Positions 26,074 to 62,214 of a stretch of 64,000 bases of DNA are shown piece by piece. Each line of letters opens with the position of its first letter. Position 1 is the first letter of the stretch. A model generated the notes under the pieces. It was not told the origin of the DNA and ran no database searches. It was given only the letters and a program-made list of their open reading frames with translations. Made by a program: the position numbers and the translations under genes. Source of the stretch: a virus; IMG/VR virus record IMGVR_UViG_3300034073_004354, positions 83,741 to 147,740 of that record; one strand, written 5' to 3'.

Positions 26074-26439
26074 TCAGTTTTTCTTGATCTTGTCTGAAAG
26101 AATATCTAGGTGAAAAAGTAAACTTTCTACTTTGGCCGGATCACAAAGATCAAATATTTGGTCTAAATCCCAAGTGGAATTGGGGACAATCTTTCCTTCT
26201 AAATTTTTCTTGGTAGAAAGGTGGTATCCAAACCATTGCGTTTCAAAAGACCCATCATCTAGCTTATTGATAAAGCAACCATAAATGGTTCCATCTAAAA
26301 TATAAGCTTGAATACCAACTTCTTTTAATCTAGATACTAGGTTGTTATTAGGATGCCAAAACAACTCCCAATCCTGCCTAGATAATCCAGAAATACTAAT
26401 ATAATCGTCGTTTACTTTAGAAGTTTGGATTGTATCCAA
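26074..26439 (-). CDS. Small cap-motif family protein (outlying member)
   Basis: The C-terminus W-D-L-D-Q-I-F-D-L-C-D-P-A-K then L-L-F-H-L-D-I-L fits the cap motif of the paralogue array at 56-61.6 kb. The N-terminal half has Trp-rich beta elements (D-W-E-L-F-W-H-P-N-N-N). It is monocistronic with its own promoter candidate. Function unknown. Confidence 0.6.
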   Translation of the reverse strand: MDTIQTSKVNDDYISISGLSRQDWELFWHPNNNLVSRLKEVGIQAYILDGTIYGCFINKLDDGSFETQWFGYHLSTKKNLEGKIVPNSTWDLDQIFDLCDPAKVESLLFHLDILSDKIKKN

Positions 26440-29297: not shown

Positions 29298-29299
29298 CT

Positions 29300-30592: not shown

Positions 30593-30655
30593 TTTTTCTC
30601 CTTTTGTTAAGATAACATACTAATTTATATTAGTAAAGTCAAGGGGTGTTCTTCG

Positions 30656-38540: not shown

Positions 38541-38696
38541 AAAGTCAGGATGGGATTTTAACCCACCTCCTCTCCTAAAAGAACGTTAGTATTGCAAATT
38601 GAAAGAAAATCAAATAAAGATTAATTTGCAATTAATTTTATATTTTGCGAGCGCTCTGTAGTTCTTTCTACTAGGTATCATTGAGCTACTGACTTT
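38541..38696 (-). ncRNA. tRNA-like structured RNA, copy 1
   Basis: On the minus strand the ends pair as an 8-bp acceptor-like stem (AAAGTCAG / CTGACTTT). Next comes TAGCTCA ... GAGC as in a D-arm, but the loop carries a 24-base insert with its own GTAG/CTAC hairpin. The 3' half has a T-arm-like stem GTGGG-TTAAAAT-CCCAT. Instead of an anticodon arm there is a ~75-base AT-rich section closed by CTC/GAG. No CCA is encoded. Copy 2 at 39067-39232 keeps the helices with compensatory changes, which supports a real RNA. Confidence 0.6.
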
Positions 38697-39057
38697 ACTT
38701 ATTGTTTAAGAATGTTCTCAAATTAAACACAATTTCTTCTTTAGCTTTATTAGAAATAAGATTACTGTCCAAAACTTCTTCCAGCGAAGTGTCTAAAAAC
38801 TTTTTCTTATTTTTCTGTTTTAACTTCCAAATAAGTTTAATATCAACAAACTCACCAATCCCACTTGGCCAAAAAACTTTTTTAACTATCAGAAAGAATC
38901 TACTTCCACGGATGTTAAATATTTCTGCATCTGGTGAATAGGCTGGACCTATTTTTGTTAGTACAAAAGTATTCAAACTATTTAATTCATTTATTTTCTT
39001 CTGAAATCTGTCTTGGGCATCTTCATAGCTCTCAAATAAATTGTCTAATGAAATCAT
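38695..39057 (-). CDS. Small cap-motif family protein between the two structured RNAs
   Basis: Start at M-I-S-L-D-N-L-F (39057); the longer frame would translate part of structured RNA copy 2. The end, S-L-E-E-V-L-D then E-E-I-V-F-N-L-R-T-F-L, matches the cap of the 56-61.6 kb array. Middle part is beta-rich. The stop codon overlaps the 5' end of structured RNA copy 1 by two bases, so RNA, gene and RNA are probably on one transcript. Confidence 0.6.
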   Translation of the reverse strand: MISLDNLFESYEDAQDRFQKKINELNSLNTFVLTKIGPAYSPDAEIFNIRGSRFFLIVKKVFWPSGIGEFVDIKLIWKLKQKNKKKFLDTSLEEVLDSNLISNKAKEEIVFNLRTFLNNK

Positions 39058-39066
39058 GTTGCACCA

Positions 39067-39232
39067 AAAGCCGGGGCGGGATTTTAACCCGCCTCCTCTC
39101 CTAACTATTAGGTATATAATACAAACTGGAAGAAGCCTATCGGCTAATCTGTATCTCAAATGCTTAAAAACATAGAATCTTATGGAGCGCTCTGTAGTTC
39201 CTCCTACTAAGTATCATTGAGCTACCGGCTTT
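39067..39232 (-). ncRNA. tRNA-like structured RNA, copy 2
   Basis: Minus-strand acceptor-like stem AAAGCCGG / CCGGCTTT, D-arm-like TAGCTCA ... GAGC with the same insert as copy 1 (one or two transitions), T-arm-like GCGGG-TTAAAAT-CCCGC. Compared with copy 1, both strands of the acceptor and T stems change together. The section replacing the anticodon arm differs in sequence but is again closed by CTCC/GGAG. No CCA. Not a normal tRNA and not a recognisable tmRNA. Confidence 0.6.
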
Positions 39233-39907: not shown

Positions 39908-40189
39908 TCAATGGGCTGGAGTGGTTGGTACGGCAGTAGTAGTTGGTGTAACTGTGGTTGTAGTTGGGGTAACAGTTGTAACACCATCTACAACTACTGG
40001 AGTAACTTCAGTAGTGGTAACTGCTTCTGATACACCGGTGGTTACATCAGTAGATGAAACTGGGGTTACAACAGGTGCAGGGGTAACTACTGCTGCGGCA
40101 TCGGTATCTTGCACACTTGGGGTCTGCTCACTTACCTCAACGCCACCACAAGCAGTTAAAAATAGTGTCATCCATACTAACTTAGTCAT
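39908..40189 (-). CDS. Thr/Val/Pro-rich lipoprotein (93 aa)
   Basis: Signal peptide with lipobox L-T-A-C (Cys14), then a Thr/Val/Pro-rich low-complexity tail with repeats such as V-T-P-T-T-T. No globular domain. SD AAGGAG and a clear terminator make it an independent unit. Likely a surface-exposed phage lipoprotein, perhaps for superinfection exclusion, but only the lipobox is evidence. Confidence 0.75.
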   Translation of the reverse strand: MTKLVWMTLFLTACGGVEVSEQTPSVQDTDAAAVVTPAPVVTPVSSTDVTTGVSEAVTTTEVTPVVVDGVTTVTPTTTTVTPTTTAVPTTPAH

Positions 40190-40882: not shown

Positions 40883-43800
40883 TTAAAATCCAACTCCGAA
40901 CTCACCAGACTTCTGCCTGGCAAGAAGCAGTTTTGCATTTTTATAAGTTTCTTTTGCCACCTTGATTTGTTGTTGTATAGAGAAATTATCTAAAATCTTA
41001 TCAATGTATTTTGATACCATATCAGGTGTAACTACGGTTCCAGTCTCAGAGATCATTCCCTTGATGGTTTCTCGGTCTTCATTTGTTAGATCAGAAATCT
41101 CAAAGGCTGCACCATATTTTCCATGAATAAAGCCAAGGATTGTTTCTGCATGTTCTTTGTAGTTTACAACGAAACCCCTAATTAAATCTAACCACAGTTC
41201 ATCAATTCCTTTTCTAATAACGTCACCAGTAGCACCTTCAAGTTTACTTACCCACAAATCATAGTCTGATTCTTTTAGGTCTTTAACTGGCAAGAATGTC
41301 TCCAAGTAATACTTTAAGATAGACTTAGCATCTTCCTTGGACAATTCACCGACCACCATAACCTTAGCGAAGCGTCTAAGCATGGGGGTTGGAATTCTTT
41401 TTGGATGGTTTGTAGCACCCCAAATTGAAATGCCTGGATAGGCAACAACACCATCCATTAGATTCTGGAATTCTAAGGAAAGGTTAATCTTGGATGTTGA
41501 TTGGTCATCATTTAAGATCATATCAATTTCATCAATTAAAATATATACTGGACGACCAGAAGACTTATGAAGTTTAATTGCTTCATCAAACAACCTCTTT
41601 GGATTCTTTTGTGCTTCACCTAGCCAGCAGGTTAAAAAATCGGATCCTACAGCAAAGATTGCAATGCTATCTGGATCTGAAGAAAGTGACCTCAGAACCT
41701 CGGTATTATGATTCATCATTCCGTTTGCAGCAAAGCTTTCTGCACCTGGGACAACAAGATCATACACTGGATGCTCACCAGTGTTTTCTACTGATACGAT
41801 CTTTGACCAACGATACTGTGTTGAGCCTAAAGAATCTGTGATCTCCTTTGACTTTTGGGATGGATTTAATAAAGAGAGTAGTTGAGCAAGAGTTTCTCGA
41901 CTCGGCAGAGCCTTACCAGAAGAATAATTCCAAAGCTTCTTGTGAGTAGATCTAGGAAGCTCTCCAGATTCTGACTTTAGAATCTTCCATAGATCTTTCG
42001 AAATGGGTACTTGATCATAGTTATGGTTAGCCTTGACTTCTAATTCACTAACTTTTGCTTGTTTTCTTGGAAGTCTAAATCCAATCTTTTGATAGAAGGA
42101 CCGTGCATCATCACCATAAATATTAAGTCTCCATGCTTTTTCGGTGTGTCTAGATACTCTAGAAATAATCCCAAATGAAGTAAGCATTAGTTGAACCTGT
42201 CTAATAAGTTTTTCACTATTAGTTCCAAACTCAATTCTTTGACCATAGCTAGAGCCATCAGAGTCAAACAATCCTGACAAGTATGCTCTCCACGATTCTT
42301 TATTTCCCTCCAAAATATACTTTGGAGTTACTTTATTTGCTGCAAGTCTGCCGCAATCTGCTAGTAATTCTTTGTTTTCTGATGAAAGCTTCATAGCCCT
42401 TACAGAATATGCCTGTCCATCATACTTATATACCTTTGGTTCACAAAAGTGCTTTGAGATTAGTCCAACAACTTTTTCATTAAAGTAATCCCAATCTTGA
42501 TCTCCAACGGTAATATTCATACTCTTATAAAGACCTTCTTTATTATACTCTCCATTTCCATCTCCCACGTAATAACCCAAAACATAAGCTTTGTCTGGAT
42601 CAACTAGGTTTGGTCCGGCTGGAAGTTCTTCTCTTACAATTGCAACGTAATCACCTTCTTTAATTTGATCTAATCTCTTCCAGTCTGGACCGGAATCGGT
42701 TGCTACAATTACACGGTGCTTTGCAGTTCCTTCTATTTTGAATCCAAAACGATCTTCAATCTTAATACAAGGCTGAATACCGGAATCATAAAAGTGGCTT
42801 GATTGAGTCATTCCAATAGTAGATCTTACCCCGACCTTTATAGGATGGTAGCCATCTGAGTCAACTGGTCCTGGCTGTAGTTCTAAAATTGTTTTTAGAC
42901 CACGATCAGTAAAGATCATAGTATCTCCACGAACGCACTTTCCGCATCCCTGAGGCCCTACTAACAGGACGTTTGCTTTATCTGTAGACTTAGATGGTGA
43001 GGTTGCTAAGAATAGTGGGCTCCATTTCTTTGCCTCATCCATTCCTGAAATAAAAGTACGAACTTCATCAAAGCCACTACCCCAAATATTGTTTAAATTT
43101 ACATGAGGCTTTTCACCGGGAATAATCTCAATAGCACCTGGGGACTCACCAGTAAACATATTTCCGGTTCCAATTCTACAAACATAGAATGAGTTTTCAA
43201 GAACGAAGAAGTTTCTTTCAATTACTTTTAGTTTAAGTACCTCACTTACAATGTCCTGCACACTTTCGCCTTCTGCCATTAGGTCAGCAACCTTTTGGAT
43301 GGACTTGTTTTGATGTTCTAAAGCAAACTTTTCGGTCTTAGAGAAAGCACGCTCTGGTGGCCTTTGTGTAATCTGTGATAGATCTAGGCTTTCCACAACG
43401 TCAATAAAATCACGATGTACCTTTTTTAGGTCAACAGATAGCAATTTCCAGACAGGCTCGCCTATAATTTGCTTTAATTTAATAACTAGTCTTAGAACTG
43501 AGTCAACAGTCGGCATAGAAATTTCCGACCATCTGATTAGTTGACTTCCTGGAACTGTAATCCACTTCCAAATTTCATCATTTTTGGCGGCCTCAATCAT
43601 GGCATTTGCACGATGAATTGTATAAGCGCTCAACTCATCTTTAGAATGACCTGATTCAATTTCACCAACCTTATCTAGGTTTTCCCAAATTAAAATAGAA
43701 ACGTCGGTAAGTGTAGCGGAATTCTGACCCTCATACTTACATAGTACCATTCCATTAGAATGGCGGTGTCTTAGACGTTCATAATAATGTTCAAAATTCC

Positions 43801-44431
43801 TACTCTGGGCTTGAAGATATTGCTCGTATAACCTAGGAATCTTTTCTAAGATTGCCAAGCCCTGCATAAAAGTTGCGCTGGCACCACGATTAATTTGCTG
43901 CTCTAAGGCAAGCCCTTTGATGGTATCCTCAGAGCCTTGCTGTAAAGAGTTAAATAGTGCCTTTACTCTTTCTTCACCCAGCTCTAGCGAAGCACCATTT
44001 AGTTGTGTAGACCATTTATTTAATGTTTCATCCAAAGAAACCATTTTAGAACTACAAAGCAGTTCAGAGCCTTGAACCAAGGCTGAATAAATATTTACAA
44101 TGTGTTCATAATGTGAAGAGATGATAACAGAAATATCAATAGGACTAGAGTTATTGGATACTACATCTTGCTGCTTATCTAAGCCGTCAAAAATCTTCTT
44201 TGCTTCCTTGCGTCTTTTGGCATACCCTTCGCCACTTACTTGCTTCCTAAACTCCTTAGCTTGCTTAGCGATCTTTTCATATCTATCAAGATTTTCCTTC
44301 ATCATAGGAAGTAGTTCGCGGATCTGACCAATCTCATCAGCTTTTGTGGCTCTAATAATATTAGCGTATTTAATTGGGTTGTCTGATGCTGTTTGACTTA
44401 GGATAACTGCCGCAAGCTCTTGAGTATCCAT
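40883..44431 (-). CDS. AAA ATPase split by a LAGLIDADG intein
   Basis: After removal of the 411-residue intein the ATPase has 771 residues. The intein interrupts Walker A between G-P-Q-G-C-G-K and T. Downstream are Walker B V-Y-I-L-I-D-E-I-D, sensor-1 W-G-A-T-N-H-P and the arginine finger L-R-R-F-A-K. The N-terminal ~490 residues are helical and unfamiliar; they may bind substrates. It ends F-G-V-G-F, like the ATPase at 26564. Without splicing the enzyme cannot bind ATP. SD and a consensus promoter lie upstream. Role unknown; remodelling or DNA-associated motor are options. Confidence 0.88.
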   Translation of the reverse strand: MDTQELAAVILSQTASDNPIKYANIIRATKADEIGQIRELLPMMKENLDRYEKIAKQAKEFRKQVSGEGYAKRRKEAKKIFDGLDKQQDVVSNNSSPIDISVIISSHYEHIVNIYSALVQGSELLCSSKMVSLDETLNKWSTQLNGASLELGEERVKALFNSLQQGSEDTIKGLALEQQINRGASATFMQGLAILEKIPRLYEQYLQAQSRNFEHYYERLRHRHSNGMVLCKYEGQNSATLTDVSILIWENLDKVGEIESGHSKDELSAYTIHRANAMIEAAKNDEIWKWITVPGSQLIRWSEISMPTVDSVLRLVIKLKQIIGEPVWKLLSVDLKKVHRDFIDVVESLDLSQITQRPPERAFSKTEKFALEHQNKSIQKVADLMAEGESVQDIVSEVLKLKVIERNFFVLENSFYVCRIGTGNMFTGESPGAIEIIPGEKPHVNLNNIWGSGFDEVRTFISGMDEAKKWSPLFLATSPSKSTDKANVLLVGPQGCGKCVRGDTMIFTDRGLKTILELQPGPVDSDGYHPIKVGVRSTIGMTQSSHFYDSGIQPCIKIEDRFGFKIEGTAKHRVIVATDSGPDWKRLDQIKEGDYVAIVREELPAGPNLVDPDKAYVLGYYVGDGNGEYNKEGLYKSMNITVGDQDWDYFNEKVVGLISKHFCEPKVYKYDGQAYSVRAMKLSSENKELLADCGRLAANKVTPKYILEGNKESWRAYLSGLFDSDGSSYGQRIEFGTNSEKLIRQVQLMLTSFGIISRVSRHTEKAWRLNIYGDDARSFYQKIGFRLPRKQAKVSELEVKANHNYDQVPISKDLWKILKSESGELPRSTHKKLWNYSSGKALPSRETLAQLLSLLNPSQKSKEITDSLGSTQYRWSKIVSVENTGEHPVYDLVVPGAESFAANGMMNHNTEVLRSLSSDPDSIAIFAVGSDFLTCWLGEAQKNPKRLFDEAIKLHKSSGRPVYILIDEIDMILNDDQSTSKINLSLEFQNLMDGVVAYPGISIWGATNHPKRIPTPMLRRFAKVMVVGELSKEDAKSILKYYLETFLPVKDLKESDYDLWVSKLEGATGDVIRKGIDELWLDLIRGFVVNYKEHAETILGFIHGKYGAAFEISDLTNEDRETIKGMISETGTVVTPDMVSKYIDKILDNFSIQQQIKVAKETYKNAKLLLARQKSGEFGVGF
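41705..42937 (-). other. Intein with LAGLIDADG homing endonuclease (411 aa)
   Basis: Cys1 is at 42937-42935 in C-V-R-G-D-T-M-I, and the C-terminus is M-M-N-H-N at 41705 followed by Thr+1. The splicing Thr and His lie in G-T-A-K-H-R-V. The homing endonuclease is intact by eye: both motifs are present (V-L-G-Y-Y-V-G-D-G and L-S-G-L-F-D-S-D-G), followed by a helix-turn-helix-like insert. Insertion at Walker A is a favoured intein site in ATPases. Confidence 0.93.
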
Positions 44432-45163: not shown

Positions 45164-45679
45164 CTAAATAATACTCGATTCTTTTACATTAGGTGTTATT
45201 ATATTGTTGAGCTGTTTGTAAAATTTATCAGCTTCTTCTAATGCTATAATTAAGGCAACACCTTCTATTCTAGAGTCACCTAGCAAGCAAGACATCCATC
45301 CTAGTGGTTTTAAACTATTTTCTTCTCGAATCTTTTCAATCACATGAGATACCACGCCCCACTCTACAGAGTCATAGCCATCAAAATGACAGATGTAAGC
45401 ATAATCATCTCTTGAGATCATTCTCACTAATTCTAATATAGCACCCCTCGTGGCTGAATCAGACAAGTCAGGTATGCTATCAAATATAGAAGCAGTCTCG
45501 GTATCCCTCAAGGAGAGAATTCTAATCTCTGGTTTTAGATAGTCTTTTTTATCTGAGGATGTGTTTCTTACACCTAGCATCCCAGGCATCCACTTCCAGC
45601 ACTTAAGCTTAACTGCCTTCTTAGCATAAGAAACCATAAAATCATCCATCTTCTCATTGTATTTTAACCAGCTATTCAT
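45164..45679 (-). CDS. Conserved phage hypothetical protein (171 aa)
   Basis: Contains K-C-W-K-W-M-P-G-M near the N-terminus, then a region I-P-D-L-S-D-S-A-T-R-G and L-E-L-V-R. These motifs recur in uncharacterised phage and prophage proteins. SD GGAGG before ATG 45679. It overlaps the upstream lipoprotein by four bases. Function unknown. Confidence 0.65.
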   Translation of the reverse strand: MNSWLKYNEKMDDFMVSYAKKAVKLKCWKWMPGMLGVRNTSSDKKDYLKPEIRILSLRDTETASIFDSIPDLSDSATRGAILELVRMISRDDYAYICHFDGYDSVEWGVVSHVIEKIREENSLKPLGWMSCLLGDSRIEGVALIIALEEADKFYKQLNNIITPNVKESSII

Positions 45680-46329
45680 TCTTCCTCCGCCCTGTAATCA
45701 TTGGTATTACCCTGCACCCAAATATCAGTAGGTATAAAATTATAATTTTCGAATTCAATATACTCTTTTTCTTTTGTTTCGTCATCTTTATCTAATTCAT
45801 GATTTGAATCATTAGGTACTTGATAGGGATTATTTGGTTCATAAACTTGAGAGTCATCATATCTATAAGGATTTCTTTCACCATAATAGTCTGGTTTTGG
45901 CAATCTGTAACCTAAGGGGTCTCTTTTTACCTTGGTTGTTGGTGCCGGCACAAATCTTTTATAAATCCAACCATCTTTTTCTATTGTATCATCTTTTGAG
46001 GATTCTTCTACTTTTAAATTATTTAAATCGGAATTAAAGTTATCTTCGCTATTCTCGCCTAAATCTACAGCCTCAAGTATCGCAGTATCTAAAGGCTCCA
46101 CTTCCTCAAAAGCATCGCTTGGCAATGGTGCCAAGCCTTGAGGAATATTAGGCATTTGTATTGAATTATTTAAATCCAAGTTGTCTGGAACTTCTAAGCT
46201 AGGAGGTTTTGTCAATAATGAAGGAATTTCACCAACCATTTCAGGTGTGCATCTTGAAAAGTAAAAATATATAATTAAAGATATGGACAAGTATAAAGTT
46301 ATCTTTAGGTTTCGATAATTGATTATCAT
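45676..46329 (-). CDS. Candidate lipoprotein, acidic (217 aa)
   Basis: An N-terminal hydrophobic helix (residues ~9-26) ends with F-S-R-C, a possible lipobox, although Arg at -1 is unusual. The rest is Pro/Asp/Glu/Asn-rich, poorly structured, with repeated P-x-x-Y. SD GAGG. It may be a membrane-anchored extended protein. Coupled to the 171-residue gene. A TATACT box at 46342-46347 (minus) may be its promoter. Confidence 0.6.
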   Translation of the reverse strand: MIINYRNLKITLYLSISLIIYFYFSRCTPEMVGEIPSLLTKPPSLEVPDNLDLNNSIQMPNIPQGLAPLPSDAFEEVEPLDTAILEAVDLGENSEDNFNSDLNNLKVEESSKDDTIEKDGWIYKRFVPAPTTKVKRDPLGYRLPKPDYYGERNPYRYDDSQVYEPNNPYQVPNDSNHELDKDDETKEKEYIEFENYNFIPTDIWVQGNTNDYRAEEE

Positions 46330-47207: not shown

Positions 47208-47495
47208 TCATCTTGTTACCTTGAAATAGTTAATATTAAACAGGATATCATCTTGAGCTTCTTTTGGAATGTTATCTAGAAACTCTTCTATCTCTACCTT
47301 TCGCCACATCGTTATTGAATCTTGTAAACTTAACCTTTGTGTCATCAACTTATAATCATCAAACCCCCAAGAATACAAGATTATCCTATAATTATCATTT
47401 GCCATAAAAGCATAGTCATTTAATCTCGAGACTTTCAATGACTTCATATTCATAAGTATCTTCCGCATATCTTGTAAGCTAGGTTTTTGATTCAT
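47208..47495 (-). CDS. Small cap-motif family protein
   Basis: Ends E-E-F-L-D-N-I-P-K-E-A then D-I-L-F-N-I-N-Y-F, the family cap. The N-terminal half holds M-K-S-L-K-V-S-R-L-N-D-Y-A-F and beta elements. Separate from the main array. No good SD. Function unknown. Confidence 0.6.
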   Translation of the reverse strand: MNQKPSLQDMRKILMNMKSLKVSRLNDYAFMANDNYRIILYSWGFDDYKLMTQRLSLQDSITMWRKVEIEEFLDNIPKEAQDDILFNINYFKVTR

Positions 47496-50061: not shown

Positions 50062-50370
50062 TCAAAATAAATTATTTTTATTAGCAGAATCATTTTTAAG
50101 GTGGTTTATGTTAAATATTAAAAACACCTTTAAATCGTCATTGATATTTTCAAATAATTCTTCTAGAGAAGACTCAAACCAAGTATCCATACCATAGCTA
50201 TTTTTAAGTATTTTTCCATAAGAAATATTATACTTATCATCATCTATTTGATGCAATATAATTCTAAAGTTTGACCCCTTAATTGTGCAGTAAGAACCAA
50301 AACCTTTGATGCTTTCATAGGTAAAGAATTCATTATTATTAAAAAACTCTTCCATAGAATAGTAATTCAT
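50062..50370 (-). CDS. Small cap-motif family protein with long tail
   Basis: N-terminal Y-Y-S-M-E-E-F-F-N-N-N-E-F-F, beta middle with Y-C-T-I-K-G-S-N-F-R-I-I, cap S-S-L-E-E-L-F-E then F-L-I-F-N-I-N-H-L, followed by ~11 extra residues. Function unknown. Confidence 0.6.
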   Translation of the reverse strand: MNYYSMEEFFNNNEFFTYESIKGFGSYCTIKGSNFRIILHQIDDDKYNISYGKILKNSYGMDTWFESSLEELFENINDDLKVFLIFNINHLKNDSANKNNLF

Positions 50371-50931: not shown

Positions 50932-51216
50932 TTACCTAAAGGCATTTAGGTTGAATATTACTTTTTCTTTTGTTTCTTCATTTAAAGAATCGAAAACTTC
51001 TTCAAACGAAACAAACCCTGAGTGAGTAAATCTATTTGGCATATCATATATCGTTTTTTTTGAAAAAAGCAAACGACCAAAAGATGTTACGCTATAATCT
51101 GTTCCGACAATATTCCACCATGTAATTAAGGTGTAGTTGCAGCTCTCACACCCGCAAGGTTCGTTTGGTAAAACTTTTAATACAGCATTTAGTCGTTCCA
51201 TATCTTGAGGATCCAT
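50932..51216 (-). CDS. Small cap-motif family protein, C-x-C-x2-C type
   Basis: N-terminal C-G-C-E-S-C-N-Y-T-L-I-T-W-W-N-I-V-G-T-D-Y resembles the member at 57277; cap F-E-E-V-F-D then K-V-I-F-N-L-N-A-F-R. The Cys cluster may bind zinc. It starts one base after the stop of the upstream gene. Function unknown. Confidence 0.65.
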   Translation of the reverse strand: MDPQDMERLNAVLKVLPNEPCGCESCNYTLITWWNIVGTDYSVTSFGRLLFSKKTIYDMPNRFTHSGFVSFEEVFDSLNEETKEKVIFNLNAFR

Positions 51217-53562: not shown

Positions 53563-53820
53563 CTAAAATAATTTCATAATTATAGAATCAACTAAGTCTG
53601 CCACCTCATTTAGTCGAATGGAATCTAGATGATTAGCCAACTTAATTAGTTCTTTAATGTCCTCTAGCGAAGACTTATATCCTCCGCCTCTAGCTTTCCT
53701 TTTGCAATATTGCTTCTGTGAAAAACCTTTTGGATTGGAACAATTAATATTTTTCTTATATTTTGTTGACCAACGTTTTTTGCCAACCCTAGGTGAATTA
53801 TATTTAGAAATCTTTTCCAT
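53563..53820 (-). CDS. Small basic phage protein (85 aa)
   Basis: I-N-C-S-N-P-K-G-F-S-Q-K-Q-Y-C-K-R-K matches a block often found in large phages as a C-terminal or stand-alone domain. ATG 53820 has GAGG upstream. The C-terminal helix (L-A-N-H-L-D-S-I-R) recalls the leaders of virion proteins. Convergent with the lysozyme gene. Confidence 0.65.
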   Translation of the reverse strand: MEKISKYNSPRVGKKRWSTKYKKNINCSNPKGFSQKQYCKRKARGGGYKSSLEDIKELIKLANHLDSIRLNEVADLVDSIIMKLF

Positions 53821-53948
53821 AGCCACCTCAACTCATGGGTAGATATTAATAGCGCGTATCTTACAAAGATATTTTATAATCCTCTGTTGCTAGGAAAGAT
53901 TACTATTTAATTCAGGTGTTGCGTCAAAGTTTAATTGTTTCGAAAAAT

Positions 53949-54890
53949 TTAATTAGCTAAAGTTGCAGTACCTACAATACCTACTTGACCCACTCCTTCT
54001 AAGGTAGAACCATTTGCAGGAATCATAGTTTCTGTAATTTCGTAACGATACATATAAATAGCTAATAAAGACCCAACGGGGAATTGTGATAATCCGGTAA
54101 CGAACATAGAACCGTTATCATCACCCACACAAAGCGAGCCGCCTAAATAATAGTACCCATATTCATCATATACATCAACTATGACAAAAAACAATCCACT
54201 ACCTGTTGGCTCCCATGCAAAGCTAGTCCCACTTCTATAAACCACAGGTGGAAATGCAGTATTCACAGTACTTAAAATTTCTACAGGTGTTAGTAGGAAT
54301 AGTTGTTCAGGTGTATGCAAGGCATTTTCAATAAAGAATTCGCCTAATGAATTGTTAGGATAAGTCTCCAATCCATAAAAACTATAATATGAAAAATCAT
54401 TTGGATACTGACTTTCCATCCTATATTCTGGCTGCCCTTGATTATAAACTCTGGATAAGGTTAGTGTGTTGACCTGGTCAGATATCTGCGCAGATGCACC
54501 TATGTTATAAAATTGTGTTGAAGGATCAGTCTGTGAAACAAACCCGGTACAAGTTCCTGCTGGTGGAATCCATTCGTTCCAAGACCTATTTACAGGTGGG
54601 TGTAAGGCTAAAACAGAAGATACTCTTGTTGTTGTAGTATATTCATAAAAGCATTCTGGACATGGCACATCTAATCTTGTAAACCTTAATACACCACCAT
54701 ATAATCCGGTTGGGGTAATAACAGTAGTATCCGTATCAGAAAAAGAAGTATCGCTAACAACATCTGTTTCAAAAACATAGTCTGTTTCTACCACTTCTGT
54801 ATCCAAGGATATGCCCGTCTCAACCTCATCAATCATATAGTCTACAGATAAACCACCACAAGAAAGTAATAATAAGAGAAAGCTATTCAT
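53949..54890 (-). CDS. Lipoprotein with Asp/Thr-rich spacer (313 aa)
   Basis: A short signal with lipobox L-L-S-C is followed by a Asp/Thr/Glu-rich spacer to ~60 (D-T-S-F-S-D-T-D-T-T) and then a beta-rich ectodomain with many Tyr/Phe and several Cys. This build is typical of Myxococcota-type surface lipoproteins. SD GGAG. Likely displayed on the host outer membrane. Confidence 0.7.
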   Translation of the reverse strand: MNSFLLLLLSCGGLSVDYMIDEVETGISLDTEVVETDYVFETDVVSDTSFSDTDTTVITPTGLYGGVLRFTRLDVPCPECFYEYTTTTRVSSVLALHPPVNRSWNEWIPPAGTCTGFVSQTDPSTQFYNIGASAQISDQVNTLTLSRVYNQGQPEYRMESQYPNDFSYYSFYGLETYPNNSLGEFFIENALHTPEQLFLLTPVEILSTVNTAFPPVVYRSGTSFAWEPTGSGLFFVIVDVYDEYGYYYLGGSLCVGDDNGSMFVTGLSQFPVGSLLAIYMYRYEITETMIPANGSTLEGVGQVGIVGTATLAN

Positions 54891-56089: not shown

Positions 56090-56392
56090 TTATACTCCAA
56101 ATATATCTAGGTTCCAGATTATTTTTTCCTTGATATCTTCTGGGCAAAGATCAAAGAATTCTTCAAAAGTTACTGGCTTATATAGAAATTCAATATCTAG
56201 CTCGTTAATATGCCTTAGGTATTTTATTTTAATCCCTCCTTCTATTAGGAGGTAGACTTGAAACTTTAATTTTTGATCTTTAATATAGAAGTGATTGTAG
56301 AATTCACCAGGAGTGATAAAGTCTAAATCTGCTATTTTATCTAGGGCTTCGTAATATTTCTTGGTGTAGTCATCAGAACTATCATGACTCAT
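56090..56392 (-). CDS. Small cap-motif family protein (array end)
   Basis: N-terminal D-L-D-F-I-T-P-G-E-F-Y-N-H-F matches the 'D-F-L-x-x-G-E-F' subgroup (57879, 60059); cap F-E-E-F-F-D-L-C-P then K-I-I-W-N-L-D-I-F. The last codons (GGA GTA TAA) form the SD of the RNA ligase. Function unknown. Confidence 0.65.
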   Translation of the reverse strand: MSHDSSDDYTKKYYEALDKIADLDFITPGEFYNHFYIKDQKLKFQVYLLIEGGIKIKYLRHINELDIEFLYKPVTFEEFFDLCPEDIKEKIIWNLDIFGV

Positions 56393-56576
56393 TGGAAATA
56401 TCTAGATTTAGAAGCGTTTGAATTAGCTCATATTTTTTGATCGGAGGTAAAGATCTATAGTAGGAATTAATTTCTGCCGGGATTACCTTAACAGAATCAT
56501 TATGATTTAGGCATGATATTGAATCATCACCCTTACAATTGGGGCAAGGTTCAAAAACATAAATATCGTAATTCAT
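56382..56576 (-). CDS. Small Cys protein (64 aa)
   Basis: C-P-N-C-K-G and a later C-L-N-H form a possible zinc site. The C-terminal helix L-P-P-I-K-K-Y-E-L-I-Q resembles the cap of the surrounding family but lacks the final motif. It is chained to both neighbours by overlaps. Confidence 0.55.
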   Translation of the reverse strand: MNYDIYVFEPCPNCKGDDSISCLNHNDSVKVIPAEINSYYRSLPPIKKYELIQTLLNLDISNES

Positions 56577-56903
56577 TTACCACAAATCCACGTATGGATT
56601 GCTTGGCCTTGTATAACCACAAATTTTATAAACCTGGCCCTTTAAGAATCCATATTGGCGATTCCATTCTGGCATAATTTTACCCTTATCTAGATTGTAG
56701 TTTTTACGCAATTTATCTAAGGTAGCCTCGCAGAACTGAGACTCCAGATCTGAAATCTTATTCATTAGAGATTCTCTTTGCTCTGGAGTGCCTGAAAAAG
56801 AACTACTCATAAGCATCTGCCTTAGGTGCCTTGAATCAGAATGAAATGACTGCTCTAAGGTCATAGAAACTAGTTCTAGCTCCGTTTGATTATCTTGTTC
56901 CAT
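56577..56903 (-). CDS. Hypothetical protein (108 aa) inside the array
   Basis: SD GGAGG. Mainly helical with a Met/Ser-rich middle and W-N-R-Q-Y-G-F-L-K-G-Q near the end. Unlike its neighbours it lacks the cap motif. Function unknown. Confidence 0.6.
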   Translation of the reverse strand: MEQDNQTELELVSMTLEQSFHSDSRHLRQMLMSSSFSGTPEQRESLMNKISDLESQFCEATLDKLRKNYNLDKGKIMPEWNRQYGFLKGQVYKICGYTRPSNPYVDLW

Positions 56904-56911
56904 AATTCCTC

Positions 56912-57271
56912 CTATTTAAATAACTCGAGATTAAAAACAATCTTTTCCCTTAGATGGTCTGGAAGGAAATCGAATACTTCTTCCAGGCTATATTCGACCA
57001 CCATAGTTTTTGGCATCATCGGGCATATATTGGTGAGTCGGATCTTTTGATAGACATAAGAAGCGTAAATTACTTTTTGTGTAAGCCCTGAGATATTAGT
57101 CTTATAAGATGTTTGCTTAAACTTAACTACATCCACTGGGAGTGTAAAGCTACAAATATCACACTTACATTCAACAAATGAATCGCTTAGTAATAAAGCC
57201 TTTGCATCTTCATCTCTTTGAATTAGGTCACTTATATAGCTAACTTGTAGCTTGTTATTTATAGTTGGCAT
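56912..57271 (-). CDS. Small cap-motif family protein, C-x-C-x2-C type
   Basis: C-K-C-D-I-C-S-F-T-L in the centre and the cap S-L-E-E-V-F-D-F-L-P then K-I-V-F-N-L-E-L-F-K. It resembles 50932 and 57277. A possible SD is far from the ATG. Function unknown. Confidence 0.65.
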   Translation of the reverse strand: MPTINNKLQVSYISDLIQRDEDAKALLLSDSFVECKCDICSFTLPVDVVKFKQTSYKTNISGLTQKVIYASYVYQKIRLTNICPMMPKTMVVEYSLEEVFDFLPDHLREKIVFNLELFK

Positions 57272-57276
57272 TTGAT

Positions 57277-57558
57277 CTACAATTCCTCTCTAGGAAGAAA
57301 TTCATTCAGGTTAAAAATCAAAATATCTTTAAACTCTCCATCGACACCATCAAAAAATTCTTCAAAGCAAATATATTGACAGTGCCTTGCAGGACTTGAC
57401 CATCCACCTACTGGATAACTTACCGCATATGAAAATCCTCCATCATCTTTGGTAATCCAATATTTGGTTCCGATTATATTAAACCAAATAATATCTGATG
57501 GCTCTTCGCAACCTCCGCAATAACACTGTGCCAGTAATTCTTTTGGAAAGATTTCCAT
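57277..57558 (-). CDS. Small cap-motif family protein, Cys type
   Basis: ATG 57558 (M-E-I-F-P-K-E-L-L) with AGGA overlapping the upstream stop; the longer frame is rejected. It has C-Y-C-G-G-C-E-E and I-I-W-F-N-I-I-G-T-K-Y as at 50932. Cap F-E-E-F-F-D then L-I-F-N-L-N-E-F plus a short tail. Function unknown. Confidence 0.65.
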   Translation of the reverse strand: MEIFPKELLAQCYCGGCEEPSDIIWFNIIGTKYWITKDDGGFSYAVSYPVGGWSSPARHCQYICFEEFFDGVDGEFKDILIFNLNEFLPREEL

Positions 57559-57563
57559 TATTC

Positions 57564-57875
57564 CTACTTGAAGATATCTAAGTTGAATATAATCTTGTCC
57601 TGCCACTCTTGAGGTAGTATTTCAAACCATTCATTCATATCAATTGATTCCTGCATGATATTGCCACGATTAATGATAATAAAATATCTTTCACTTATAA
57701 AGTATCTCATACCATCATACGTAGAATCTAAACAATTTTTTCCATAAATAACTATTCCAAAATCTGTCTTTGGAATACATAAATGGTCATATGTTACTCC
57801 GCTTTTATAAATAACAAAGCCCATATCTAGAAGTATAGCTTTGTACTCATCGTATGTGAACTTTGTAAAATTCAT
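57564..57875 (-). CDS. Small cap-motif family protein
   Basis: Begins M-N-F-T-K-F-T-Y-D-E-Y; beta-rich middle; cap M-N-E-W-F-E-I-L-P then K-I-I-F-N-L-D-I-F-K. Its stop TAG is part of the SD (TAGGAA) of the next gene. Function unknown. Confidence 0.65.
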   Translation of the reverse strand: MNFTKFTYDEYKAILLDMGFVIYKSGVTYDHLCIPKTDFGIVIYGKNCLDSTYDGMRYFISERYFIIINRGNIMQESIDMNEWFEILPQEWQDKIIFNLDIFK

Positions 57876-57878
57876 GCC

Positions 57879-58193
57879 TCACCGAAATAAATCTAAGTTA
57901 AATAAAATCTTTTCTTTAATATCATCAGGACACATATCAAAAAATTCTTCAAAAGGTGTGACGATATAATAGTTTGAAGAATGGTTGGATGGAATAAGAT
58001 ATTGAATCATTGGCCTGTTTACATCAACCTCAATAATTCTCATCCTTAGATTCGACCCAATAAAAGAATATTGATTAGAAAACTCTCCCCTCTCAAGGAA
58101 ATCTAAATTATCTAGCCGCCGATATAGTTTTGATAGAATATTTTTAGTTTTTTTCACAAGAGAATTTATATCATCAAATTCATCATCTATCAT
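57879..58193 (-). CDS. Small cap-motif family protein, D-F-L type
   Basis: L-D-N-L-D-F-L-E-R-G-E-F-S-N matches 60059 and 56090. Cap F-E-E-F-F-D-M-C-P then K-I-L-F-N-L-D-L-F-R. The SD is AGGTGA, formed by the final Arg and stop codons of the upstream gene. Function unknown. Confidence 0.68.
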   Translation of the reverse strand: MIDDEFDDINSLVKKTKNILSKLYRRLDNLDFLERGEFSNQYSFIGSNLRMRIIEVDVNRPMIQYLIPSNHSSNYYIVTPFEEFFDMCPDDIKEKILFNLDLFR

Positions 58194-58196
58194 TTT

Positions 58197-58484
58197 TCAC
58201 CTAAACATATCTAAATGAAAAGCAAAACAAGCTTGTGTTTCTGGCTTTGCAGATTCAAAAAATTCTTGGAATGTTTTGTGAGGTCGGCTTGGCAAATCCC
58301 ATTGCATTATTGTAATCTTGCAACGTCGGTCTAGCGGATCTAGAGAGTTTCTCCTATCAACATAGAACATCCAATCATCACCCGCAACCTTAAAATGATT
58401 GGGCGATTCCACCAAACTCTTAAGGCAACTAATTGATTCTAAATATTCTCTAGCCTTAGAATATTCTAAGCTTTCAATCTTCAT
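58197..58484 (-). CDS. Small cap-motif family protein, M-K-I-E type
   Basis: M-K-I-E-S-L-E-Y-S-K-A and L-E-S-I-S-C-L open the protein; a Trp/basic beta middle follows; cap F-Q-E-F-F-E then F-H-L-D-M-F-R. TTT AGG TGA ends the gene and serves as SD for the next. Function unknown. Confidence 0.68.
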   Translation of the reverse strand: MKIESLEYSKAREYLESISCLKSLVESPNHFKVAGDDWMFYVDRRNSLDPLDRRCKITIMQWDLPSRPHKTFQEFFESAKPETQACFAFHLDMFR

Positions 58485-58494
58485 AATTTATTTC

Positions 58495-58848
58495 TCACCT
58501 AAACATATCAATGTGAAAAATTAAATCAGCCTTGACTTCATCCGGTGCCACTTCCCAAAATTCTTCAAAAGTATACATATAGCGATGCTTGGCGAAAAGC
58601 TTAGGATTCCAAAGCTTCTCTGTCAAAGATTCTTTGTAGCTTGGTGCCGGATGTAATCCCATTATATATAGCCTATGTTTATCCTCTTGATTGTACAACT
58701 TTTGTAAACATAGTGACCAAGGATATCTACCAATGTCAATCCAGCACTCTCTTATGGTAAAATAATCATCACCAGATCCCTTAGATAAGCATGGAATCTT
58801 CAGTAAATAATCTACAGCATCTTCTAATGATAGTTTTTCAATCTTCAT
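58495..58848 (-). CDS. Small cap-motif family protein, M-K-I-E type
   Basis: M-K-I-E-K-L-S-L-E-D-A and a long middle (~60 residues) with C-W-I-D-I-G-R-Y; cap F-E-E-F-W-E-V-A-P then L-I-F-H-I-D-M-F-R. It overlaps the stop of the lipoprotein by four bases. It resembles 61250. Function unknown. Confidence 0.68.
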   Translation of the reverse strand: MKIEKLSLEDAVDYLLKIPCLSKGSGDDYFTIRECWIDIGRYPWSLCLQKLYNQEDKHRLYIMGLHPAPSYKESLTEKLWNPKLFAKHRYMYTFEEFWEVAPDEVKADLIFHIDMFR

Positions 58849-59732
58849 AGAGAAGTCACCGTGCGTTGCGGCCAGTTAACACCAGCATAATCATTATCTG
58901 AATCCTCTCCAGAAATAGTACGAGTATCATTCCACATCAACACTCCACCAATATAAATATTTACAGTTACATCATTAGCTGGCTGATAAACAGACCCAGG
59001 ATAATCGTGAACCATTACTCTATACATTCCAGATAATGATGGCTCGGCAATATTAATATTCTCTGGGCCTGTGCCTGGAATATCATCTATATCTAAAGCA
59101 GGATTGTCTGCACTACCAGCATTACCCCACTCCAATCCAGAACCGCCAAATGCTGTGGTGCAGTTAGCATAATAACAATCTCCATTTGTCCTCTCGTTAC
59201 CATTGGGACGAATTAAATGCAAATCCATATCATCACCGTTATGAACCCAATACATTTCGATCCAAAGATTATCCCCAGGAACAGCATCCACAGAACAATC
59301 TACAGGATCAGAACGACGACCATCAGAGGTTTCTACAACCAATCTTGCAATATACTGACCGGCAAGATCAGGTGTTACTTCCCGCTCCCAAGGTGATGTT
59401 GCCGCAAGAAAAGATGCCGAACCATTAGGCTGCGTTACTAATGACCAATCCCAAGTAACAATATTCATTCCTGCTGGATCATATGAATCACGACCGTAAA
59501 AGGTTGCTGTCTCAAATGGTGGTGTAACTTCAACTGGATCCACAGAGCAAACAGCTACAGGAGAATCTCCAATAGTTTCTTCATCGGTATCTGGAATGTC
59601 TGTATCCTCGGGAATATCTATTGTAAATGCTGTATCAGAATCCTGTGTGTCCTCAGGTGGTAAGTCCTTTCCAAGATCGTAATCTGATATACAAGCTGAT
59701 AATAATCCAAAAATAAAAAGTAGGTGTCGCAT
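58845..59732 (-). CDS. Lipoprotein with PKD-like and D-x-D-L-H-L domain
   Basis: Lipobox L-S-A-C (Cys14), an Asp/Thr/Glu spacer (residues ~15-58), then a PKD-like beta domain (Y-D-P-A-G-M-N-I-V-T-W-D-W) and a domain with D-D-M-D-L-H-L-I-R-P-N-G, N-G-D-C-Y-Y-A-N-C and Y-R-V-M-V-H-D-Y. This pair is characteristic of Myxococcota-type secreted proteins. It was probably captured from such a host. It interrupts the paralogue array and is coupled to 58495. Confidence 0.82.
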   Translation of the reverse strand: MRHLLFIFGLLSACISDYDLGKDLPPEDTQDSDTAFTIDIPEDTDIPDTDEETIGDSPVAVCSVDPVEVTPPFETATFYGRDSYDPAGMNIVTWDWSLVTQPNGSASFLAATSPWEREVTPDLAGQYIARLVVETSDGRRSDPVDCSVDAVPGDNLWIEMYWVHNGDDMDLHLIRPNGNERTNGDCYYANCTTAFGGSGLEWGNAGSADNPALDIDDIPGTGPENINIAEPSLSGMYRVMVHDYPGSVYQPANDVTVNIYIGGVLMWNDTRTISGEDSDNDYAGVNWPQRTVTSL

Positions 59733-59742
59733 TAATTTCTCC

Positions 59743-59760
59743 TATGATATATATATCATA
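59743..59760. repeat. 18-bp perfect palindrome upstream of lipoprotein
   Basis: TATGATATATATATCATA is self-complementary and lies in the 47-base gap between array genes, next to the lipoprotein SD. It could be an operator or a weak hairpin; AT-richness makes chance possible. Confidence 0.4.
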
Positions 59761-59779
59761 ATTAGCAGCCTGCATCATG

Positions 59780-60055
59780 TTAACGAAACATATCAAGGTG
59801 AAAAAGCATCTCCTGCTGAACCTCTAATGGGGCTATATCAATAAATTCTGCAAAAGATACTCTACGCCCATTAGTGTTTAAAATCTTAAGCTGACACTTA
59901 TAAATATAATTATTATAAACAATTGGCACCAAAATGAACCACCAATCTGTTCCCCTAATCCTAAATGTATTCGAGTTTTGTTTCATATTTTCAAAAATTG
60001 AAATGCTTCTCAAAAACTGATTTGCAACATCAATATACAACTTTTCAATTTTCAT
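59780..60055 (-). CDS. Small cap-motif family protein, M-K-I-E type
   Basis: M-K-I-E-K-L-Y-I-D-V-A, L-R-S-I-S-I-F, middle with D-W-W-F-I-L-V; cap F-A-E-F-I-D-I-A-P then L-F-H-L-D-M-F-R. SD AGGTGA comes from the upstream end. Its own end uses CGT TAA instead of AGG TGA; the lipoprotein that follows has its own SD. Function unknown. Confidence 0.68.
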   Translation of the reverse strand: MKIEKLYIDVANQFLRSISIFENMKQNSNTFRIRGTDWWFILVPIVYNNYIYKCQLKILNTNGRRVSFAEFIDIAPLEVQQEMLFHLDMFR

Positions 60056-60058
60056 AAG

Positions 60059-60322
60059 TCACCTAAATAGATCTAAATGATAAACTATTTTATCCTTGAT
60101 GGTTTCCGGCAATTCATCAAAAACTTTTTCGAATGTAAAATTATCGTTAAAATTAACCGTAGAGATAAATTCTCCTTGCCCCATACCAGAATCATTTTTG
60201 AAAACATAAAATACATAATAAGTGCCGGTAACATAATATGAGATGTAATTTTTATTACGCAATCCTCTTGGTGTTAGAAAGTCTAATTCATCAAGATTTC
60301 TAACAAGATCTTCGTAGCTCAT
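60059..60322 (-). CDS. Small cap-motif family protein, D-F-L type
   Basis: L-D-E-L-D-F-L-T-P-R-G-L then Y-Y-V-T-G-T-Y-Y-V-F-Y; cap F-E-K-V-F-D-E-L-P then K-I-V-Y-H-L-D-L-F-R. Shortest member (87 aa). Ends TTT AGG TGA. SD GAGGTGA upstream. Function unknown. Confidence 0.68.
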   Translation of the reverse strand: MSYEDLVRNLDELDFLTPRGLRNKNYISYYVTGTYYVFYVFKNDSGMGQGEFISTVNFNDNFTFEKVFDELPETIKDKIVYHLDLFR

Positions 60323-60330
60323 AATTCACC

Positions 60331-60621
60331 TCACCGAAATAAATCAAAATTGAAAAGAAGATCTTCCCTAGATCCTTCATCACAACTATTAAAAACTTCC
60401 TCAAAGGTTACAATGCTTCTATGCTGAGTTTTCCAATCCATAAATAAAACCATACATTTACTTCCTTTAGGCGTCCAATATTTGTTTTCAGGCCCTACCC
60501 AAATAACATATTTGGTTTCCCCAACTCTAAAGTGCTGATCCGATGTTGGAGTTTCTTTAAAGCAGGAAATTGATTTCACAGCAGCCAAAGCTTCTTCGTA
60601 GGATAACTTATCAATCTTCAT
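60331..60621 (-). CDS. Small cap-motif family protein, M-K-I-E/D type
   Basis: M-K-I-D-K-L-S-Y-E-E-A, V-K-S-I-S-C-F, F-R-V-G-E-T-K-Y; cap F-E-E-V-F-N then L-L-F-N-F-D-L-F-R. Ends CGG TGA followed by GGTGA, so the next SD is again at the end. Function unknown. Confidence 0.68.
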   Translation of the reverse strand: MKIDKLSYEEALAAVKSISCFKETPTSDQHFRVGETKYVIWVGPENKYWTPKGSKCMVLFMDWKTQHRSIVTFEEVFNSCDEGSREDLLFNFDLFR

Positions 60622-60624
60622 CCA

Positions 60625-60921
60625 TCACCTAAACATATCAATGTGAAAAAGAAATTCTTCTTGAATATGCTCGGGAACAGACTCTAAAAAATCTTCAAAA
60701 TCTATACCGTATGCTACTCCACCGTCGTCATACGTTAGATTAATTATAAACTTACAGCAAAACAATCCATTCATCGACGGAATCCTTACAACAATATTAT
60801 AATTTTCCGCGCCAACTACTATAAACTGTTTCTCCAGAAGGTAAGAACCAACTGGCTTTAAGCAGGATAGCTGAGAAAGAAAACTCTCTGCTTCGTTAAT
60901 ACTCATATCTTCAATCTTCAT
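60625..60921 (-). CDS. Small cap-motif family protein, M-K-I-E type
   Basis: M-K-I-E-D-M-S-I-N-E-A, L-S-Q-L-S-C-L, F-I-V-V-G-A-E-N-Y; cap F-E-D-F-L-E-S-V-P then F-L-F-H-I-D-M-F-R. Ends TTT AGG TGA. It has an independent SD (AGGAGG) after a 32-base gap. Function unknown. Confidence 0.68.
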   Translation of the reverse strand: MKIEDMSINEAESFLSQLSCLKPVGSYLLEKQFIVVGAENYNIVVRIPSMNGLFCCKFIINLTYDDGGVAYGIDFEDFLESVPEHIQEEFLFHIDMFR

Positions 60922-60953
60922 TTAGCCTCCTGTAAAATATCTTCTCACAAGAT

Positions 60954-61238
60954 CTATCCTAGCAAATCCATATGCCACAAAAATTCTTCCCTTGCTTCCT
61001 CAGGCAGTTCCTCAAAAAATTGTTCGCGGCTAAGATGCCCGCCGCTGATAAGATGCTCCTCCGCATTAAGCTTTCTCATAAAATTAAGCTTCGAGGTTTT
61101 GTTGTTAAAATTTAATCCAATAGAAATATATAGATCAGAATTTTTCACCCGCCAATCTGCAAATCCAACCGCAGGCTCCAAACATCTAATCTTGGCAAGC
61201 TCTTTGTTGTATGCGCTATATTCTCTAGATGTTTTCAT
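60954..61238 (-). CDS. Small cap-motif family protein, diverged
   Basis: Start ATG 61238 aligns with other members (M-K-T-S-R-E-Y ... I-R-C-L); a GTG at 61253 is an alternative. Cap E-Q-F-F-E-E-L-P then F-L-W-H-M-D-L-L-G: Phe-Arg is replaced by Leu-Gly, and the gene after it has its own SD. Function unknown. Confidence 0.65.
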   Translation of the reverse strand: MKTSREYSAYNKELAKIRCLEPAVGFADWRVKNSDLYISIGLNFNNKTSKLNFMRKLNAEEHLISGGHLSREQFFEELPEEAREEFLWHMDLLG

Positions 61239-61249
61239 AACTCCCTTCT

Positions 61250-61594
61250 TCACCTAAACATATCTAAATGGAAAACTAAATCATTCTGAATATGAGATGG
61301 TGCCGCCTCAAAAAATTCATCAAACAAATAAATAAATTTATTGTTAATATATGGTTGAGGGTGGAAAGCAGCAGCATTTTTTTTAAAATTATTGGTTGGC
61401 GAAGGAGCCGTCCCAAGAAAAAGCAATCTACACTTTTCTTTCTGATGATATAATCTATATAGCTGAAGCTGCCATTGTGTACCAGAAACTTCAAGCCAAC
61501 GTTCATCGACTGTAGAAAGTCTTACGCAAAATATAGAAGGAATTCCTACAAGATAATCGGACGCTTCTTCTAATGTCATGTATTCAATCTTCAT
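61250..61594 (-). CDS. Small cap-motif family protein, first of the array
   Basis: M-K-I-E-Y-M-T-L-E-E-A, V-G-I-P-S-I, then a long middle (Y-R-L-Y-H-Q-K-E-K-C-R) like 58495; cap F-D-E-F-F-E-A-A-P then L-V-F-H-L-D-M-F-R, ending TTT AGG TGA. SD GAGG before ATG. Promoter should lie in the 92-base divergent gap. Function unknown. Confidence 0.68.
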   Translation of the reverse strand: MKIEYMTLEEASDYLVGIPSIFCVRLSTVDERWLEVSGTQWQLQLYRLYHQKEKCRLLFLGTAPSPTNNFKKNAAAFHPQPYINNKFIYLFDEFFEAAPSHIQNDLVFHLDMFR

Positions 61595-61686
61595 TTTAAC
61601 CTCAGCAAATATTTTTAATCCTATTAATAAAATTAATTTTTACTGATATATCTTATGAGATTATGATATTTGGTAGGAGTGGAATT

Positions 61687-62214
61687 ATGAATGTTAAATA
61701 TAGATTGTTAAGATTATCCAAATTTCTTGGGGAAAATGGATTATACAAAGAGGCTTCCGCATTGAAATCTTTGGCAAGCTCCGTATACAGCGAGCCATCA
61801 AAAGATTTAATTGAATCCGCAAGAAATGTAAAAAATATAAAATGGAAAGAACCAGATATCGAAGAAGAAATAGGAGAGATCGTTAGGACCGCCAAAGAAT
61901 TTGACGTACCACTAGATGATATTATAGGTGCAGTAAAAGAGGCTAAATTAGAAGAGATTACTGATGATGTCTGGAGCCAGTTACAGAATACAGATTCTTA
62001 TAATATATCAGTCGAACAAGCCCTTGAATTATCTAAAGAATACAATAGAAATATATCCCGTATATATAAAGGCATTAAAAACGGAAAAACTCTACCTGCT
62101 CCAATAGTTCTCTCTATTAACGATGAAGAGTTCTATTTAATAGGTGGAAACACTAGACTTATGGCTTGTGCTAGTTTGAATAAAGTTCCCAAGGTATTGA
62201 TGATTAAAATATAA
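61687..62214 (+). CDS. ParB-like nuclease-fold protein with N-terminal leader
   Basis: The C-terminal ~45 residues (L-P-A-P-I-V-L-S-I-N-D-E-E-F-Y-L-I-G-G-N-T-R) resemble the ParB/sulfiredoxin fold with its G-x-x-R core. The N-terminus is a leader of the type R-L-L-R-L-S-K-F-L then Y-K-E-A-S-A-L, as in putative virion proteins. ATG 61687 has GGAG upstream. A packaged DNA-binding or nuclease protein is possible. Confidence 0.7.
   Translation: MNVKYRLLRLSKFLGENGLYKEASALKSLASSVYSEPSKDLIESARNVKNIKWKEPDIEEEIGEIVRTAKEFDVPLDDIIGAVKEAKLEEITDDVWSQLQNTDSYNISVEQALELSKEYNRNISRIYKGIKNGKTLPAPIVLSINDEEFYLIGGNTRLMACASLNKVPKVLMIKI

What the first reader, a model, noticed from the sequence alone, without database searches (positions are those of the whole stretch)
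56090..61594. Expanded family of small proteins sharing a C-terminal cap (13 in one array, at least 18 in the window)
Seen: genes at 26074, 38695, 47208, 50062, 50932, 56090, 56912, 57277, 57564, 57879, 58197, 58495, 59780, 60059, 60331, 60625, 60954 and 61250 encode ~85-120-residue proteins whose last ~28 residues follow one pattern: an acidic-aromatic helix (F-E-E-F-F-[D/E]), a P-x-x-[I/V]-[K/Q] turn, then [I/L]-[F/W/Y]-[N/H]-[L/I/F]-[D/N]-x-[F/L]. The first ~60 residues are very different and beta-rich. Inference: the cap could dock to a common partner while the variable part meets changing targets, as expected for inhibitors of host defences or host-range adaptors. I know no described family with this cap.
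Basis: partly seen in the sequence, partly recalled or inferred. Interest (0 to 1): 0.92.

Follow-up and report, generated by a model that had tools for sequence, protein, structure and literature searches.

The report
Huge-phage small proteins sharing one tail
A group of giant bacterial viruses carries dozens of small, fast-changing proteins that all end in the same 25-residue tail, resembling nothing in the databases searched; the tail probably plugs into one shared partner while the rest varies, but nobody has tested what they do.

Summary
All 18 genes exist on the minus strand, 13 of them in one operon-like array, and a 19th weak member lies elsewhere in the same 147.7-kb huge-phage record. 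The shared C-terminal motif occurs near stop codons about 70 times more often than its internal rate predicts. Two related huge phages (335 and 332 kb) show the same enrichment. There it also sits on other N-terminal parts, including Imm5-like repeat proteins. No Pfam, PHROG, NCBIfam, PADLOC, PDB, viral-fold, cultivated-phage or cellular-genome relative was found. About half are detectably homologous, and two partly independent AlphaFold runs give the same order (helix, four strands, two or three helices), so the "cap" is the last layer of one small domain. Cap identity is 34% against 15% for the rest, with synonymous codons randomised in both. This points to old duplications with selection on the cap protein and no recent gene conversion. 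My best reading is an accessory host-interaction family whose cap binds one invariant partner (confidence 0.4). Conservation for folding or oligomerisation alone is a close rival. Bacillus phage G has an unrelated but architecturally similar 36-copy family.

The parts
61250..61594 (-). member (114 aa), first gene of the array; cap 61253-61330
60954..61253 (-). member (99 aa), GTG start, cap 60960-61037
60625..60921 (-). member (98 aa), cap 60628-60705
60331..60621 (-). member (96 aa), cap 60334-60411; AlphaFold pLDDT 93, pTM 0.81
60059..60322 (-). member (87 aa), cap 60062-60139
59780..60055 (-). member (91 aa), cap 59783-59860
58845..59732 (-). not a member: lipoprotein-like gene inside the array (295 aa)
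58495..58848 (-). member (117 aa), cap 58498-58575; closest to 61250 (37% over 120 aligned columns)
58197..58484 (-). member (95 aa), cap 58200-58277
57879..58193 (-). member (104 aa), cap 57882-57959
57564..57875 (-). member (103 aa), cap 57567-57644
57277..57606 (-). member (109 aa; start codon uncertain), cap 57298-57375; C-x-C-x2-C subgroup
56912..57271 (-). member (119 aa), cap 56915-56992; C-x-C-x2-C subgroup
56382..56903 (-). not members: two small ORFs without cap (56382-56576, 56577-56903)
56090..56392 (-). member (100 aa), last gene of the array, cap 56099-56176
50932..51216 (-). member (94 aa), cap 50935-51012; second AlphaFold model pLDDT 74, pTM 0.60, same order of elements
50062..50370 (-). 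member (102 aa), cap 50095-50172
47208..47495 (-). member (95 aa), cap 47220-47297
38695..39159 (-). divergent member (true start probably an internal ATG), cap 38710-38787
26074..26439 (-). divergent member (121 aa, TTG start), cap 26098-26175

Best explanation
This is a lineage-specific family of small phage proteins (about 70-215 aa; in the window mostly 87-121 aa), expanded by old duplications in a clade of huge phages distantly related to Bacillus phage G. Most members are one small domain: a helix, a four-stranded sheet, then a helical hairpin ending at the C-terminus (predicted). Shown: the hairpin (the cap) is far more conserved than the rest, is kept by selection on the protein sequence, lies at the C-terminus in nearly all members, and also occurs on differently built N-parts. 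Inferred: the cap binds one invariant partner, phage or host, and the diverging part meets changing host molecules, so the family acts as accessory host-takeover or counter-defence adaptors co-expressed from an operon. Which partner and which targets is unknown.
For: C-terminal enrichment of the motif: 18 vs 0.26, 14 vs 0.17 and 17 vs 0.27 expected in three phages. Most non-redundant caps end within 7 residues of the stop. Cap identity 34% vs 15% for the N-part, while synonymous codon agreement equals the codon-usage expectation in both (0.588 vs 0.555; 0.460 vs 0.444): old paralogues, no recent gene conversion, selection on the cap. The cap sits on AYA-repeat proteins with an Imm5_like match in G001. 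Copy number is patchy in the clade: 19, about 15 and about 16 against at most one weak match in the fragment G006, whose head protein is 81% identical, as expected of accessory genes. Array genes are close together or overlapping with no terminator-like site inside. One member has a syntenic counterpart in G001 and G002, next to the same SpoVR-like gene (SpoVR by eye); the rest are lineage-specific.
Against: No partner or target identified. The model places the cap as part of the domain (pLDDT 93), and its conserved positions are mostly hydrophobic, so folding alone could explain much of the conservation. No member resembles a known anti-defence or takeover protein. The Imm5_like match is below Pfam's cut-off (21 vs 25 bits) and lies in biased sequence. 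G006 is a fragment, so its lack of copies is not proof of absence.
Confidence: 0.4

Rival explanations
1. The cap is conserved only because it is the folding core or the homo-oligomer interface of one small domain; there is no common partner, and the sheet varies because it is the working surface.
For: Two models built from overlapping but different alignments give the same order of elements with the cap helices in place. Conserved cap positions are mainly hydrophobic. N-parts of half the members are homologous.
Against: The same C-terminal motif ends Imm5-like proteins with a helical-repeat N-part. Conserved polar positions (E-20, D/E-17, K/Q-10, N/H-4, D-2) are kept too, though some may be helix caps.
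Confidence: 0.33
2. The cap is a C-terminal sorting signal that loads these proteins into the virion, so that they are injected with the DNA, in the manner of the phage T4 internal proteins.
For: Strictly C-terminal and shared by otherwise divergent small proteins. In G002 an array of about ten lies just downstream of the major head protein gene, and G001 has one member there. Phage G has its own small-protein array at that place.
Against: Most copies in G000 and G001 are far from head genes. The known T4 signal is a short N-terminal peptide, not a C-terminal hairpin that is part of a folded domain. No virion data exist.
Confidence: 0.14
3. The last residues ([NH]-[LMI]-[DNE]-[LIM]-[FL]) are a sliding-clamp binding peptide like QL[SD]LF, so the family docks on the replication clamp.
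For: Positions 2-5 of the pentapeptide fit the published consensus as I remember it, and it lies at the C-terminus.
Against: Position 1, Q in the consensus, is N or H in 37 of 43 non-redundant caps and never Q. The model puts the segment in a short helix, not an extended tail.
Confidence: 0.04
4. Neutral or selfish gene amplification without a conserved function.
For: Copy number and N-part sequence vary greatly between related phages.
Against: Cap protein sequence is conserved while synonymous codons are randomised, which needs purifying selection.
Confidence: 0.03

Closest known systems
Zinc-ribbon protein expansion of Bacillus phage G (about 35 copies reported in PMC7824862; e.g. YP_009015343.1)
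   Same: Lineage-specific expansion of small proteins in arrays, one downstream of the major head gene; 36 copies found here, most aligning to the profile's C-terminal end, which carries a conserved helix (KENDRYL-like in the five inspected). The phage is the nearest cultivated relative (major head protein 51% identical).
   Different: No sequence relation: profile comparison probability 0.2%, no cross-hits; invariant CPIC...C..C zinc-ribbon cysteines are absent here.
Imm5 / Imm5_like immunity proteins (PF14423, PF21805)
   Same: In G001 the same C-terminal cap ends about 11 AYA-repeat proteins; the one scanned matches these models weakly.
   Different: The window's proteins do not match them and are predicted alpha-beta4-alpha-alpha, not helical repeats.
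SPO1 host-takeover module and its ClpC adaptor-like Gp53 (PMC6873191)
   Same: Cluster of phage proteins acting on host machinery; Gp53 is an adaptor that docks on a host AAA+ chaperone.
   Different: The abstract describes 26 genes with varied targets; a shared terminal cap among them is not mentioned in what I read (abstract only). A resemblance of working mode only; no homology tested.
T4 internal proteins with capsid-targeting sequence
   Same: Small variable proteins sharing one terminal element (from general knowledge; papers found were not read).
   Different: There the shared element is a short N-terminal signal; here it is a C-terminal helical hairpin inside a folded domain.

Membership tests
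Any Pfam / PHROG / NCBIfam / PADLOC family | match above curated or convincing threshold | tested here: not met
   (ten members for Pfam, NCBIfam and PADLOC, all 18 for PHROGs); the weak phrog_3474 match (9.5e-5, one member) is unspecific since that model rings in 7 of 14 control genomes
Known solved or predicted viral fold | Foldseek or sequence match to PDB; Foldseek match to BFVD | tested here: not met
   no hit with E<=0.001, best E 0.13, TM about 0.4; second model likewise against PDB; PDB sequence profile search E 0.59
Phage G zinc-ribbon family | CPIC...C..C cysteines and KENDRYL-like C-terminal helix | tested here: not met
Imm5_like (window proteins) | match to PF21805/PF14423 | tested here: not met
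   ten members scanned
Imm5_like (G001 cap proteins) | match to PF21805 above cut-off | tested here: inconclusive
   21 bits, E 3.3e-4, cut-off 25 bits
T4-type internal proteins | shared targeting signal at the N-terminus | tested here: not met
   shared element is C-terminal
T4-type internal proteins | present in the virion and injected | not testable with these tools
   needs virion proteomics of an isolate
Sliding-clamp binding peptide QL[SD]LF | Q at position 1 | tested here: not met
   0 of 43 non-redundant caps
Anti-defence protein | blocks a named bacterial defence system | not testable with these tools
   experiment needed

The most novel reading that the evidence does not exclude
The cap is a portable docking module of a phage adaptor system: one invariant phage or host machine (for example an AAA+ unfoldase-protease) is recruited through the same C-terminal hairpin by dozens of variable recognition domains, including Imm5-like ones, so that a huge phage carries its own repertoire of exchangeable substrate or target adaptors, working like F-box or Clp adaptors.
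Probability: 0.15. Interest if true: 0.88.

Novelty: new variant of a known kind. Interest (0 to 1): 0.6.

Why it matters
Most huge-phage genes have no known function. This gives a sequence handle (one C-terminal motif) that unites about 50 otherwise unannotatable proteins in three phages into one testable class, with a predicted fold lacking a convincing known match. If the cap binds one partner, a single pull-down would explain all of them at once, and the variable domains would be a ready list of candidate host-takeover or counter-defence proteins. Phage G's unrelated expansion with its own conserved C-terminus suggests this may be a recurrent strategy of huge phages.

Tried and rejected
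Pattern scan of 84,980 cellular genomes: 63 stretches, none encoding a relative by HMM; the pattern itself catches only 6 of 18 window members, so this limits rather than excludes cellular relatives. tblastn against cultivated phages with two members, an E<=10 search with one of them giving only chance-level hits; distant blastn against plasmids. Protein-guided scans of viral contigs with two window members: no further relatives. Cap search in phage G, LR745208, Tunturi_5, Rctr197k and in clade fragments G004, G006, G010, G011: none at E<=0.05; a whole-family HMM gave one weak match in G006 (E 0.0035). phrog_3474 rejected as unspecific. Gene conversion as the cause of cap similarity rejected. 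Promoter-like sites in the array are no more frequent than in shuffles. Two alignments were too divergent for the search for related loci. The clamp-peptide idea is kept only as a weak rival. G004 is the same phage as G000 (essentially identical over the 98-kb overlap), so it is not independent evidence.

Full report
What was checked. The window is the last 64 kb of a 147,740-base virus record (G000). Thirteen form a tight array at 56090-61594, with gaps of a few bases or short overlaps, interrupted by a lipoprotein-like gene and two capless ORFs. A family HMM finds one more weak member in the rest of the record at about 30.6 kb.

More than chance. Leave-one-out HMMs rank 15 of 18 caps first among 1,318 decoys. 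Three rank second, with the weak 19th member left in the decoy set and probably taking first place. A short regular expression for the last eight residues occurs within ten residues of a stop 18 times in this record against 0.26 expected from its own internal rate. Position was not part of the expression, so this is largely separate support, although the expression was written from these caps.

With the cap removed, 9 of 18 N-parts still rank first by an HMM of the others, and pairs such as 58495/61250, 50932/57277 and 56090/57879 align over nearly their full length. AlphaFold on 60331 with all 18 sequences gives pLDDT 93 and pTM 0.81: a helix, four strands, then two or three helices. A second run on 50932, with an alignment that excluded the main subgroup around 60331, gives the same order with lower confidence (pLDDT 74, pTM 0.60). 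So the family is mainly one small domain with a hypervariable body and a conserved last layer, not a cap on unrelated folds.

Beyond the window. A degenerate DNA pattern found relatives in two further huge-phage records: G001 (335 kb) and G002 (332 kb), which share some 80 genes with G000, including terminase, portal, major head protein and GroEL. G000, G001 and G002 have 19, 15 and 16 matches at a permissive threshold, and the terminal motif is enriched in G001 and G002 too (14 vs 0.17, 17 vs 0.27). In G001 about eleven of the capped proteins are AYA-repeat proteins; the one scanned weakly matches Imm5_like. In G002 about ten small ORFs with related ends lie downstream of the major head gene. 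One member has a syntenic counterpart in G001 and G002, upstream of a SpoVR-like gene identified by eye. The nearest cultivated relative, Bacillus phage G (head protein 51% identical), lacks the family.

Evolution. Cap residues are 34% identical between paralogues and N-part residues 15%, yet where residues agree, codons agree no more than codon usage predicts. The duplications are therefore old, recent gene conversion is not the cause, and the cap is held by selection on the protein.

No known family. Pfam, PHROGs, NCBIfam, PADLOC, PDB sequences, PDB and viral folds, cultivated phages, plasmids and a pattern scan of 84,980 cellular genomes give nothing convincing. The cellular scan used a pattern matching only a third of the window members.

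How it may work. Shown: a C-terminal, selected, highly conserved hairpin on fast-diverging small proteins, partly portable between N-parts, encoded in arrays of varying size within one phage clade. Inferred: a common partner for the cap and changing partners for the body. The main rival is that the cap is simply the folding core. Its conserved positions are mostly hydrophobic, which fits that; its presence on Imm5-like proteins and its conserved polar positions speak against it being the whole story. A virion-sorting role is possible, given the place of the G002 array, but untested.

Precedent. A survey of jumbo phages reports about 35 copies of a zinc-ribbon protein in phage G (PMC7824862). 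I found 36; the profile reaches its C-terminal end in most copies, and the five inspected share a KENDRYL-like C-terminal helix. They are unrelated in sequence to this family. The kind of thing, an expanded array of small proteins with a conserved end, thus has a precedent; the family and probably the fold are new. SPO1's Gp53 (PMC6873191) shows that a phage adaptor docking on a host AAA+ chaperone exists, which makes the adaptor reading plausible but does not test it.

Noticed in passing
window 61663-62214 (+) and 53563-53826 (-); also G001 and G002: A short helical tag, roughly L-x-K-L-A-x-x-L-D-x-x-G-x-x-x-E-A-D-x-x-D-x-L, occurs in at least six otherwise different proteins of the clade, mostly near one end; possibly a sorting or assembly signal.
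   Followed up: partly
window 13623-15551 (-) and 40883-44431 (-): Intein-like insertions, one in an AAA+ ATPase gene; the terminase gene of the same record also carries a LAGLIDADG endonuclease match.
   Followed up: no
window 810-2429 (-) and record G000 28968-30629 (-): Two GroEL genes in one phage (the first by eye, the second by PHROG match).
   Followed up: no
window 17569-18072, 27840-29297, 29719-30240 (all -): By eye: translation initiation factor IF-3, lysyl-tRNA synthetase and peptide deformylase homologues, plus three tRNA genes.
   Followed up: no
window 31835-32506, 39908-40189, 45676-46329, 53949-54890, 58845-59732 (all -): Several proteins with lipoprotein-like N-termini, some with Asp/Thr-rich stretches; one sits inside the array.
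   Followed up: no
L097 (IMGVR_UViG_3300035670_011573, 177,932 bases): Same phage as the window's record: essentially identical over about 98 kb and extending about 79 kb beyond its start.
   Followed up: yes
L231 (Bacillus phage G 23000-36000) and 352-371 kb of that genome: Phage G's 36-copy zinc-ribbon family shares a conserved C-terminal helix; most of the copies at 352-371 kb lie in open frames of about 200 codons with room for an N-terminal extension.
   Followed up: partly
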